Origin: Moritella sp. 24
GTDB taxonomy: Bacteria; Pseudomonadota; Gammaproteobacteria; Enterobacterales; Moritellaceae
DNA: 64,000 nt
Assembly (NCBI RefSeq): GCF_018219155.1
Contig: NZ_CP056123.1
Span: 4,225,505 to 4,289,504, forward strand
Direction: 5' to 3'
The translations under genes and the position numbers were made by a program. Below are positions 55,996 to 60,203 of the stretch, piece by piece (within the stretch, counting starts at the first letter, position 1; each line of letters begins with the position of its first letter). The notes under the pieces are model-generated. The model saw nothing but the letters and a program-made list of their open reading frames with translations. It ran no database searches and was not told the origin of the DNA.

Positions 55996-56071
55996 GCCCG
56001 AATAGCTCAGTTGGTAGAGCAGAGGATTGAAAATCCTCGTGTCCCTGGTTCAATTCCGGGTTCGGGCACCA
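55996..56071 (+). tRNA. tRNA-Phe (GAA), copy 1
   Basis: 76 nt with encoded CCA. Acceptor stem GCCCGAA / TTCGGGC, D-loop AGCTCAGTTGGTAGAGC, anticodon loop TTGAAAA (anticodon GAA at 56029-56031) and T-loop GGTTCAATTCC. Separated from the next tRNA by 78 bp that hold a possible internal promoter (TTGTTT-16 bp-TATTAT with a GC-rich discriminator). Confidence 0.98.
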
Positions 56072-56149
56072 AAATTTGGAAAGAATAAAAAAGTGTAATA
56101 TTGACTTGTTTTTTAAAATGAAGATGATATTATGCGACTCGCATTTAGT

Positions 56150-56225
<76 letters not shown>

Positions 56226-56228
56226 TTT

Positions 56229-56304
56229 GCCCGAATAGCTCAGTTGGTAGAGCAGAGGATTGAAAATCCTCGTGTCCCTGGTTCAATTCCGGGTTCGGGC
56301 ACCA
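56229..56304 (+). tRNA. tRNA-Phe (GAA), copy 2
   Basis: Identical in sequence to copy 1; 3 bp after tRNA-Thr copy 1. Confidence 0.98.
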
Positions 56305-56361
56305 TATTTAAAAGGTAGAGATATTTAATTAATAGGTATCTTTATTTAAAACGCATTTAGT

Positions 56362-56437
<76 letters not shown>

Positions 56438-56440
56438 TTT

Positions 56441-56516
56441 GCCCGAATAGCTCAGTTGGTAGAGCAGAGGATTGAAAATCCTCGTGTCCCTGGTTCAATT
56501 CCGGGTTCGGGCACCA
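56441..56516 (+). tRNA. tRNA-Phe (GAA), copy 3
   Basis: Identical to the other Phe copies; 3 bp after tRNA-Thr copy 2. Confidence 0.98.
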
Positions 56517-56569
56517 TATTAATAAGTAGAGATGTTTTAATTGTAGATATCTTTATTAGCGCATTTAGT

Positions 56570-56645
<76 letters not shown>

Positions 56646-56648
56646 TTT

Positions 56649-56724
56649 GCCCGAATAGCTCAGTTGGTAGAGCAGAGGATTGAAAATCCTCGTGTCCCTG
56701 GTTCAATTCCGGGTTCGGGCACCA
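56649..56724 (+). tRNA. tRNA-Phe (GAA), copy 4
   Basis: Identical to the other Phe copies; 3 bp after tRNA-Thr copy 3 and 6 bp before tRNA-Asn. Confidence 0.98.
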
Positions 56725-56730
56725 TACAAT

Positions 56731-56806
56731 TCCCCTTTAGTTCAGTTGGTAGAACGGTGGACTGTTAATCCATATGTCGCTAGTTCAAGTCTAGCAAGGG
56801 GAGCCA
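56731..56806 (+). tRNA. tRNA-Asn (GTT)
   Basis: 76 nt with encoded CCA. Acceptor TCCCCTT / AAGGGGA, anticodon GTT at 56764-56766, T-loop AGTTCAAGTCT. Last tRNA of the cluster, followed by the terminator. Confidence 0.98.
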
Positions 56807-57030: not shown

Positions 57031-57675
57031 TTAATTAGCTGTAATACTAATTTCTACACGACGGTTAGCTGCTCGGCCTTGTTTCGTATCATTTGATGCA
57101 ATTGGACGACGTTCACCATAACCACGCGTTGATAAACGGCCTGATTTGATACCACGTTTATTTAAATATGCGCTCACAGATTCAGCACGCTCTTCAGAAA
57201 GCGTTAAATTAGACTCTGCACTACCTACGCTATCTGTATGACCAATAATACGTAATGATGACTCAGGGTACTCATTCAGGATTTTAGCAACACTGTTTAA
57301 GCTTGAGTAGATATCAGAGCTCAAGTTATAACCAGCTGTTTGGAAGCCGATACCTTTCGCCATGATAAGTTGTAGTTCATTTTCGCCTACACGTTTAACT
57401 TGCACACCAGAACCCGTCAATTCTTGACGTAATGCCTCTTCTTGACGATCGAAGTAATGACCAATACCACCACCAATTGCCGCACCACCTAATGCACCAA
57501 ACAAGGCACCATTTTTCTTACCTGTAGACGCGCCAATTAACGCACCCGCAATTGCACCGCCAATCGCTGATTTCGTTGCTGTATTCGTTTCTTCTTCGCC
57601 TGTTGTCGCATTTTGGCGAGCACAGCCAGTCAGTGCTGCAACAATCATTATTGCTGTCATTGTTCTTTTCATCAT
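57031..57675 (-). CDS. OmpA-family lipoprotein with glycine zipper (YiaD-like)
   Basis: 214 residues. Lipoprotein signal with lipobox LTGC (Cys18), a glycine-zipper region (about 37-72: AIGGAIAGALIGASTGKKNGALFGALGGAAIGGGIG), and a C-terminal OmpA peptidoglycan-binding domain (about 100-214) with IIGHTDSVGSAESNLTLSEERAESV and GYGERRPIASN...GRAANRRVEI. It probably anchors the outer membrane to the cell wall. Single gene. The 265 bp upstream, shared with a divergent gene, show no feature I can name. Confidence 0.9.
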   Translation of the reverse strand: MMKRTMTAIMIVAALTGCARQNATTGEEETNTATKSAIGGAIAGALIGASTGKKNGALFGALGGAAIGGGIGHYFDRQEEALRQELTGSGVQVKRVGENELQLIMAKGIGFQTAGYNLSSDIYSSLNSVAKILNEYPESSLRIIGHTDSVGSAESNLTLSEERAESVSAYLNKRGIKSGRLSTRGYGERRPIASNDTKQGRAANRRVEISITAN

Positions 57676-57940
57676 TGGATAAGCCTTAATTATAGAAACG
57701 ATATTGAGAGTTAGTGATCGCGAACACTGTAACTCAAATAAAATACAAGTGCATCGGTATATTTACTAGTTAATTAACCGAATACGCTTAAATAAGTGAT
57801 TTCACTCTCACTATTCTACAATATAGACGCTTCTTACACAGCTTTACAATGACCTACCTTGAATTGTGACTCTGCGCACTCATCTATTACTAAGTATCGT
57901 AATACAATAATGCGAATGCGTTTTCTCAAAAAGGATACCT

Positions 57941-58732
57941 ATGTATAGCTTTCTCAGAACATCATTAATTTTAGTGCTAATGCTAGCCGGTAAAGCGCCG
58001 CTCGAAGCCGCTACCATGCTTAGCCTTAGCCAAGCCTCTAATAACGGCAGTGCAACGAACCGAGTTCGCACACAGTTAAGCAAAGACTTAGCCGGTCTTT
58101 ACCAGCTTCCTGATATGAACAGTACTAATATCATTCAACCTTATGACAACTTCGACGCGCTCTATTCATTAGCTGAGTCAGCACAAAATGAACTAGCAAC
58201 ACTTACTCAACAAATCGCCCTAATGTCTCAAACCAGTGCAGTTATTCCTGCTATTAAAAGTGTTGAACGTGCCCAAGCTAAAATTACAAACAAACACGAT
58301 GGTGCAGTAGAAAAAATTACCGATTTAGCCCGTAGTTCTATTATTGCAAAAAACAGTCATGAGCTAATTAGTGCTTATGAGCTGTTAGAGCAAGAAACTG
58401 ATATTATCCAAGTAAAAAATCGTTTTAATAACCCAAAACAAAATGGCTACCGTGATATCAACTTGCTCGTTCGATTACCTAAAACGCAGATGGTGGTTGA
58501 AGTGCAATTACATTTAGATCGTATCGAAGCGATTAAGAATGGTCCAGAGCATGACAATTACGCAAAAATTCAACAGATTACCCACAACGCTAAACAACAG
58601 CTGCGTGACGTATCAGAAATTGAATCATTTAAAGTTGCGCAACTAAAAGAAGAGTCGACTAGTTTATACCAAGTCGCTTGGCAGCAGCAGTTAATGCTAG
58701 AGCTAAAAACAAGCTTTAAACAAATGGCTTAA
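57941..58732 (+). CDS. Exported protein with RelA/SpoT-like nucleotidyltransferase fold
   Basis: 263 residues. N-terminal signal peptide MYSFLRTSLILVLMLAGKAPLEAAT, a helical region to about 110, then a segment resembling the RelA/SpoT synthetase fold: ITDLARSSIIAKN (Asp128 at the metal-binding Asp position), RFNNPKQNGYRDINLLVRLP (compare the synthetase NPKPNGYRSLH) and MVVEVQLHLDRI (Glu187 at the Glu of VEIQIRT). The pyrophosphate-binding basic residues upstream are weak (AKITNKHDGAVEK). A (p)ppGpp-type activity outside the cytoplasm would lack ATP, so an altered function is likely. AAAAAGG ribosome-binding site. Assignment is by motif only. Confidence 0.7.
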   Translation: MYSFLRTSLILVLMLAGKAPLEAATMLSLSQASNNGSATNRVRTQLSKDLAGLYQLPDMNSTNIIQPYDNFDALYSLAESAQNELATLTQQIALMSQTSAVIPAIKSVERAQAKITNKHDGAVEKITDLARSSIIAKNSHELISAYELLEQETDIIQVKNRFNNPKQNGYRDINLLVRLPKTQMVVEVQLHLDRIEAIKNGPEHDNYAKIQQITHNAKQQLRDVSEIESFKVAQLKEESTSLYQVAWQQQLMLELKTSFKQMA

Positions 58733-58857: not shown

Positions 58858-59208
58858 TTACGCGTAACCCCATTTCCAGTTGAACCTGATTTGATCTTGC
58901 ATACCAAAACGCACCATCAACCAAGGAACCAGAGGTAACACTTTATAATGTGCAGCTTTCTTCAATACGCTTTTACCTGTACGGAAAAAGGTAACTTCTT
59001 CACCGCTATTTAAGATGCGAACAACAATCCTTTTTTGCTTGCCCTCTTCAGGTGTTACAACTTGCGCTAGGCTATATTCATGCGTCATCCCAGACCCGTT
59101 ATAAACCAAAATAATTTGATCTTCAGTTAACTTATTACGCTCTAAGTAGCTTTTAAGCTCGCTACCCTGAAAACCAAACAAGGGATCTCTATTCATGTTA
59201 TTTTCCAT
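58858..59208 (-). CDS. Conserved-looking protein of unknown function (116 aa)
   Basis: I do not recognise the family. It is a soluble, basic protein: MNRDPLFGFQGSELKSYLERNKLTEDQIILVYNGSGMTHEYSLAQ, then a strand-rich middle (KRIVVRILNSGEEVTFFRTGK) and a hydrophobic, tryptophan-containing end (YKVLPLVPWLMVRFG, RFNWKWGYA). The ATG at 59196 (MNRDP) has GGA at better spacing and may be the true start. It lies 95 bp downstream of rpoH on the same strand, beyond the rpoH terminator, with its own terminator. Confidence 0.7.
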   Translation of the reverse strand: MENNMNRDPLFGFQGSELKSYLERNKLTEDQIILVYNGSGMTHEYSLAQVVTPEEGKQKRIVVRILNSGEEVTFFRTGKSVLKKAAHYKVLPLVPWLMVRFGMQDQIRFNWKWGYA

Positions 59209-59303: not shown

Positions 59304-60167
59304 TTATTCTGCAATAAACTCGCGAAGTTTTTTCATTGCATTTTTTTCTAACTGACGAACACGTTCAGCAGAAACACCATAACGATCTGCTAGCTCTTGA
59401 AGTGTTGCTTTATCTTCAGCTAACCAACGAGAATTAACGATATCTTGGCTACGGTCATCTAATTCAGAAATTGCTTTAGATAAACGTTGAGATGCACTTT
59501 GATCCCAATTTTCACGCTCAACTTGTTGCGCAACATCTGAAGAATTATCTTCTAAGTACTGTGCTGGAGAGAAGCTCATTGAACCAGAATCTTTATCGCT
59601 ATCGTCATCAGCATATAAATCAAATGCTTGATCTGAATAAGACATTCTCGATTCCATTTCTACTACATCTTTGGTCGAAACACCCAATGTATCAGCAACA
59701 GTTTTCACTTCATCACTGGTAAACCAGCCTAAACGTTTCTTCGATTTTCGTAAATTGAAGAATAATTTACGCTGCGCTTTCGTTGTTGCTACTTTAACAA
59801 CACGCCAATTACGAAGTACAAATTCATGAATTTCCGCTTTTACCCAATGCACCGCAAAAGACACAAGTCTTACGCCAACGGCAGGGTTAAATCGCTTCAC
59901 TGCTTTCATTAAGCCAATATTACCTTCTTGGATTAAATCAGCTTGTGAAAGTCCATAACCTGCGTAACCACGGGCAACGTGAACAACAAAGCGTAAATGT
60001 GACATGATCAACTGACGTGCAGCACCAACATCACCTTCATTCTGCAAGCGTTCGCCTAGTTCCTTTTCTTGTTCAGCAGTTAACATTGGAATACTATTCA
60101 CGCCCTGTATGTAGGCTTCAATGCTACCCTGAGGAACTAATGCCATACTTTGCATATCTTTGCTCAT
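59304..60167 (-). CDS. rpoH: RNA polymerase sigma-32 factor RpoH
   Basis: 287 residues from the ATG of [10 protein letters not shown] (60167), chosen because GGGAGA lies 7 nt before it; a five-codon longer frame exists. Region 2 ([83 protein letters not shown]) contains the RpoH box (QRKLFFNLR), which separates it from other group-3 sigma factors; region 4 helix-turn-helix is [27 protein letters not shown]. It directs the heat-shock regulon. The usual ftsE-ftsX neighbours are absent. Confidence 0.97.
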
Positions 60168-60203
60168 CAACAATTCTCCCATTATTACACGTTAATCCGC
60201 GAG

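What the first reader, a model, noticed from the sequence alone, without database searches (positions are those of the whole stretch)
57941..58732. RelA/SpoT-like fold protein carrying a signal peptide
The NPKQNGYRDINLLV and VVEVQLHL blocks and the Asp in ITDLARSS resemble the (p)ppGpp synthetase core, yet the protein starts with a clear export signal. A nucleotide pyrophosphokinase has no obvious ATP in the periplasm; related folds are used by secreted toxins. It could be a periplasmic enzyme with a new substrate, an effector, or a pseudo-enzyme.
Basis: partly seen in the sequence, partly recalled or inferred. Interest (0 to 1): 0.6.

Follow-up and report, generated by a model that had tools for sequence, protein, structure and literature searches.

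The report
Exported alarmone synthetase of Moritella
This gene makes an enzyme of the kind that produces the bacterial 'starvation alarm' ppGpp, but carries an export tag so it leaves the cell's interior; such exported alarm-makers were described in 2025 in Vibrio, Shewanella and Streptomyces, and this is the Moritella version.

Summary
In detail: 57941-58732 (+) encodes a 263-aa protein with a RelA/SpoT synthetase domain (Pfam 35.9 bits, cut-off 27) behind an N-terminal Sec-type signal peptide. The model (pLDDT mostly above 90) matches Tas1/Apk1 (6ox6) and the Streptomyces exported alarmone synthetase SaEAS (8vx3) best. The catalytic positions are intact, so a pseudo-enzyme is unlikely. The gene is in 11/11 Moritella genomes (88-93%), with relatives in Vibrio-like, Shewanella-like and other marine Gammaproteobacteria; every family member inspected begins with an export-type signal. 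Gene order differs between genera and I saw no immunity gene. This fits the 'exported alarmone synthetase' (EAS) cluster B of Ahmad et al. 2025 (PMC12691689), which includes V. parahaemolyticus VpEAS and V. cholerae RelV: a new member of a known kind. Two additions: the signal peptide is invariant in 11 Moritella species, unlike most other signal peptides nearby, and Vibrio-like homologues share a sigma-32-like promoter, weaker in Moritella. What the enzyme does outside the cytoplasm remains unknown for the whole family.

The parts
57941..58732 (+). relV/EAS-type gene: exported alarmone synthetase, 263 aa
   Evidence: ORF; PF04607 35.9 bits; fold match to Tas1 and SaEAS; 11/11 Moritella genomes
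57941..58009 (+). Sec-type signal peptide (about codons 1-23), invariant in 11 Moritella species
   Evidence: hydropathy and A/LxA motif; no amino-acid change at codons 2-23; most other signal peptides nearby vary
58253..58573 (+). SYNTH (RelA_SpoT) catalytic domain, residues 105-211
   Evidence: Pfam match 105-205; alignment A1; AlphaFold2 model
58322..58324 (+). D128 (TDLAR), equivalent of the SaEAS catalytic D121; R131 follows
   Evidence: invariant in all 29 aligned sequences; same D+3=R spacing as D121/R124 of SaEAS (PMC12691689)
58415..58417 (+). K159 (KNRF), equivalent of SaEAS K154
   Evidence: 90% or more conserved in A1; alignment to 8vx3
58460..58462 (+). N174 (GYRDIN), equivalent of SaEAS N169
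   Evidence: alignment to 8vx3; N in Moritella and Vibrio-like members, S or K in some other genera
58499..58507 (+). E187 and Q189 (EVQLHL), equivalents of SaEAS E182/Q184
   Evidence: invariant in A1; alignment to 8vx3
57858..57885 (+). possible sigma-32-like promoter CTTGAA-N14-ACTCATCT (weak -10)
   Evidence: conserved in all 11 Moritella upstream regions; score 11 against a shuffle mean of about 8.7; Vibrio-like homologues carry TTG[GA]-N13-15-CCCCA
57031..57675 (-). divergent neighbour: YiaD-family glycine-zipper/OmpA lipoprotein; not part of the system
   Evidence: NCBIfam NF053611 240.8 bits
58858..59208 (-). convergent neighbour, 116 aa, no known family; opposite strand, so not co-operonic and not an obvious immunity gene
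59304..60182 (-). rpoH (sigma-32), next but one gene; the only over-cut-off RpoH of this genome
   Evidence: TIGR02392 413.6 bits; whole genome

Best explanation
It is the Moritella member of the RelV/VpEAS-type exported alarmone synthetases. The protein is made with a Sec signal peptide, exported unfolded to the periplasm (inferred), and folds there into a single-domain SYNTH enzyme that transfers pyrophosphate from ATP to the 3'-OH of GDP/GTP, giving (p)ppGpp (inferred from VpEAS and VcRelV, which make only (p)ppGpp, and from the intact active site). Export protects the producer: relatives without the signal peptide stop growth of E. coli. My preferred role, inferred only: a latent enzyme outside the cytoplasm that acts when it meets nucleotides, released by lysed cells in its surroundings or in another cell's cytoplasm.
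For: Pfam RelA_SpoT over cut-off. PDB profile search: Tas1 9e-13, B. subtilis YwaC 8.7e-8, SaEAS 8vx3 0.009. Confident model whose top Foldseek hits are Tas1 and SaEAS. D128, R131, K159, N174, E187, Q189 match the SaEAS active site listed in PMC12691689. Export signal in all family members aligned, five families; dN/dS 0.069 with no change in the signal peptide. Present in 11/11 Moritella, 58/296 genomes of the order, 1 other of 369 in the class sample at 1e-20. Isolated locus without a co-directional partner gene, neighbours different between families, as described for EAS genes. The paper's Sec-bearing cluster B is Vibrio plus Shewanella with VpEAS and RelV.
Against: No biochemical data for the Moritella protein. 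VpEAS/VcRelV sequences were not compared directly: I inferred that genus g21 is Vibrio from genome shape, protein length, a Photobacterium hit and the ihfA-like neighbour. Older V. cholerae genetics credits RelV with raising cellular (p)ppGpp in relA spoT mutants (PMC3089054), hard to square with a purely periplasmic enzyme. The Moritella cleavage region (PLEAA, Glu near the site) is not ideal, so the protein might stay membrane-tethered.
Confidence: 0.88

Rival explanations
1. It is a cytoplasmic small alarmone synthetase that adds to the stringent response, as RelV was first described; the hydrophobic N-terminus is incidental or bypassed by internal initiation.
For: V. cholerae relA spoT mutants still make (p)ppGpp through relV (PMC3089054). 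In Moritella a Met (M26) directly follows the signal peptide in all 11 genomes.
Against: The signal is kept in every family member inspected and invariant in Moritella; no clear ribosome-binding site precedes M26, and a Met there is not conserved in other genera. Signal-less VpEAS/VcRelV stop growth, full-length ones do not.
Confidence: 0.06
2. It is an antibacterial effector that is carried into other cells after leaving the producer, like Tas1/Apk1. (This differs from the best explanation only in where the enzyme acts.)
For: Tas1 is the nearest solved relative by sequence and fold; relatives are toxic in the cytoplasm.
Against: No delivery domain, immunity gene or secretion-system gene beside it; present in all Moritella, mostly vertically inherited within families, and strongly constrained, unlike typical variable effector loci.
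Confidence: 0.2
3. It is an exported pseudo-enzyme that uses the SYNTH fold only for binding.
For: Low identity to canonical synthetases; the Asn174 position is Asn, Ser or Lys across the family.
Against: All catalytic positions tested are present and invariant in Moritella; relatives of the same cluster are active (PMC12691689).
Confidence: 0.04

Closest known systems
VpEAS (V. parahaemolyticus VP1295) and RelV (V. cholerae VC1224), EAS cluster B (PMC12691689)
   Same: Single SYNTH domain behind a Sec signal, isolated locus, marine Gammaproteobacteria; g21 (Vibrio-like) homologues of 256-259 aa are 41-46% identical to ours
   Different: Moritella is not named in the paper's main text; activity of the Moritella protein is untested; its gene neighbourhood (yiaD/rpoH) differs from the Vibrio-like ones
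SaEAS, Streptomyces albidoflavus (PDB 8vx3)
   Same: Sec-exported SYNTH enzyme; same active-site residues; second-best fold match
   Different: About 18-19% identity; released to the medium by an actinomycete; [quoted passage not shown]
Tas1/Apk1 of Pseudomonas aeruginosa PA14 (PDB 6ox6)
   Same: Best sequence-profile and fold match; shares the IKS.ERA..KI...DLAR block
   Different: Delivered by type VI secretion, has an immunity protein, makes (p)ppApp
Cytoplasmic small alarmone synthetases RelP/RelQ (YwaC, YjbM)
   Same: Same fold and reaction class
   Different: No signal peptide; His rather than Asn at the N174 position (YwaC and S. aureus RelP)

Membership tests
RelA/SpoT SYNTH domain family | Significant profile match over the curated cut-off | tested here: met
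   PF04607 35.9 bits, cut-off 27
RelA/SpoT SYNTH domain family | Fold matches solved SYNTH structures | tested here: met
   Foldseek E 2.6e-8 Tas1, 3.9e-8 SaEAS, many SAS structures
RelA/SpoT SYNTH domain family | Catalytic residues present | tested here: met
   D128, R131, K159, N174, E187, Q189
Exported alarmone synthetases, cluster B (RelV/VpEAS) | N-terminal Sec signal peptide, conserved in homologues | tested here: met
   hydropathy, motif and alignment in 26 sequences; no SignalP available
Exported alarmone synthetases, cluster B (RelV/VpEAS) | Isolated locus without adjacent immunity gene | tested here: met
   divergent and convergent neighbours, not conserved between families
Exported alarmone synthetases, cluster B (RelV/VpEAS) | Groups with VpEAS/RelV sequences | tested here: inconclusive
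   41-46% identity to Vibrio-like genomes whose names are hidden, and a named Photobacterium member; VpEAS/RelV themselves were not compared
Exported alarmone synthetases, cluster B (RelV/VpEAS) | (p)ppGpp synthesis; toxic without signal peptide | not testable with these tools
   needs expression and nucleotide assay
T6SS effectors of the Tas1 type | Delivery domain and cognate immunity gene | tested here: not met
   no further significant Pfam domain in the protein, no such neighbours

The most novel reading that the evidence does not exclude
RelV-type exported alarmone synthetases belong to the sigma-32 (RpoH) protein-stress regulon, and their signal peptide is under unusually tight sequence constraint because leakage of even a little active enzyme into the cytoplasm harms the cell (or because the signal has a second function). 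The enzyme would then be a stress-induced, exported alarm-maker rather than a starvation enzyme.
Probability: 0.3. Interest if true: 0.55.

Novelty: new member of a known kind. Interest (0 to 1): 0.32.

Why it matters
It shows that an exported alarmone synthetase is a core, strongly selected gene of the genus Moritella, so the unsolved question of what an alarmone enzyme does outside the cytoplasm applies beyond Vibrio. The invariant signal peptide supports export being essential to the protein, which bears on the conflict between the old view of RelV as a cytoplasmic stringent-response enzyme and the 2025 view. The sigma-32-like promoter gives a simple, testable hint about when the enzyme is made.

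Tried and rejected
Phage or mobile origin: no relative in viral contigs, only weak phage hits, one plasmid-filed Photobacterium replicon, present in all Moritella: rejected. Defence system: one weak PADLOC hit (20.4 bits, PDC-S33), no system around it: rejected. Conserved operon partner: neighbours differ between families: rejected. Sigma-32 promoter in Moritella: canonical sites in this genome read CTTGAA...CCCCATnT upstream of DnaK- and RpoD-like genes, whereas this gene has ACTCATCT as -10, so it is only suggestive. Signal-peptide control: my simple rule also called false signal peptides (for example a malate-dehydrogenase-like protein), so the control set is approximate.

Full report
WHAT IS THERE. 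The ORF at 57941-58732 (+) is real: ATG start, AAGGA ribosome-binding site, 263 codons. The host is a Moritella (named relatives at 88-90% identity; the ten other genomes of the genus at 88-93%). The gene stands alone, divergent from a YiaD-type lipoprotein gene (57031-57675, -) and convergent with a small unknown gene (58858-59208, -), beyond which lies rpoH (59304-60182, -).

FOLD. Pfam RelA_SpoT matches residues 105-205 with 35.9 bits (cut-off 27). The same genome has two further RelA_SpoT proteins in long open frames (749 and 722 codons, E 3e-41 or better), presumably RelA and SpoT, so the stringent response looks complete without this gene. A profile of 29 family members finds Tas1 at 9e-13, YwaC at 9e-8 and SaEAS (8vx3) at 0.009 in the PDB. 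AlphaFold2 on the same alignment gives pLDDT of 90 or more for 198 residues, with residues 1-41 of low confidence. Foldseek ranks Tas1 first (2.6e-8) and the exported Streptomyces enzyme SaEAS second (3.9e-8).

ACTIVE SITE. PMC12691689 lists SaEAS D121 (inactivating when changed) and ATP-binding R124, K154, N169, E182, Q184. Ours are D128, R131, K159, N174, E187, Q189, with identical D/R, N/E and E/Q spacing; D128, R131, E187, Q189 are invariant in all 29 sequences, K159 in at least 90%, and none varies within Moritella. N174 is Asn in Moritella and Vibrio-like members but Ser or Lys in others. The enzyme should be active; a pseudo-enzyme is unlikely.

EXPORT SIGNAL. MYSFLRTSLILVLMLAGKAPLEAA has a basic n-region, a hydrophobic core and a plausible cleavage region; the relatives from Vibrio-like, Photobacterium, Shewanella-like and other genera begin with an equivalent, e.g. 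MSLFLRTTALMLLMLSRAPAFAA. Over 11 Moritella species the protein has dN/dS 0.069, and codons 2-23 show no amino-acid change against 63 variable positions of 240 in the rest (Fisher p 0.003). Other secreted proteins of the same region mostly show more change in the signal than in the mature part (pooled 34% against 24% variable in a five-genome sample). Synonymous change is also reduced there (dS 0.22 against 0.79 in the catalytic domain), but many genes show this at their 5' end, so part of the effect may be at RNA level. The control set is small and its signal-peptide calls are by a home-made rule.

DISTRIBUTION. 58 of 296 genomes of the order, 9 of 99 genera, have a relative; in 369 genomes of the class only one genome besides our own reached 1e-20. 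The tree groups sequences largely by family, Moritella as one clade (100/100), consistent with mostly vertical descent within families; deep forks are unresolved and there are long branches. Gene order is not shared between families, though Shewanella-like (f5) genomes share it among themselves. One Vibrio-like locus (L040) lies next to an IHF-alpha-like gene and a 795-aa/327-aa pair of the size of pheT/pheS, which from memory fits the relV region of Vibrio; this is a lead, not a test.

COMPARISON WITH THE KNOWN. Ahmad et al. 2025 (PMC12691689; [quoted passage not shown] cholerae RelV, whose signal had been overlooked). VpEAS makes only (p)ppGpp and is toxic only without its signal; the genes are isolated and lack immunity genes. 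Every feature I could test is met except direct comparison with VpEAS and RelV, whose records were not in the collections I could reach. The Moritella gene is therefore best called a new member of that known kind.

HOW IT WORKS. Shown here: fold, active site, export-type signal, purifying selection. Inferred: Sec export, (p)ppGpp product, protection of the producer by export. Unknown for the whole family: substrate source and purpose outside the cytoplasm.

A NEW LEAD. All 15 Vibrio-like upstream regions aligned share TTG[GA] about 13-15 bases before CCCCA, the form of a sigma-32 promoter; three match CTTGGA-N13/14-CCCCATTT, reached by at most 0.5% of shuffles. All 11 Moritella share CTTGAA-N14-ACTCAT(C/A)T, a good -35 with a poor -10 compared with the canonical sites at DnaK- and RpoD-like genes of this genome. 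The one paper search I made for relV with RpoH showed no link. I take the sigma-32 reading as likely for the Vibrio-like genes and open for Moritella.

Noticed in passing
L055:1895-3103 (-), L056:22-1179 (-), L057:6705-7769 (+): Distant relatives in two other genera are 354-402 aa predicted lipoproteins (lipobox GC) with a ParB/sulfiredoxin-like stretch (VVKRGDG.F.VLDG) ahead of a weak RelA_SpoT match (23-30 bits, cut-off 27): an exported SYNTH fold in another format.
   Followed up: partly
L019-L036 upstream regions: Vibrio-like relV genes share an invariant CCCCA with TTG[GA] about 13-15 bases before it, like a sigma-32 promoter.
   Followed up: partly
window 57941-58009: A basic residue directly after the hydrophobic core of the signal (K18 here; R in Vibrio-, Photobacterium- and Shewanella-like members) is kept in most genera, unusual for the c-region of a signal peptide.
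   Followed up: no
window 55996-56806: Eight tRNA genes in tandem, alternating Phe(GAA) and Thr(TGT) and ending in Asn(GTT).
   Followed up: no
L047 and L048 (G038): One genome (family f5) carries two diverged copies of the exported synthetase.
   Followed up: no
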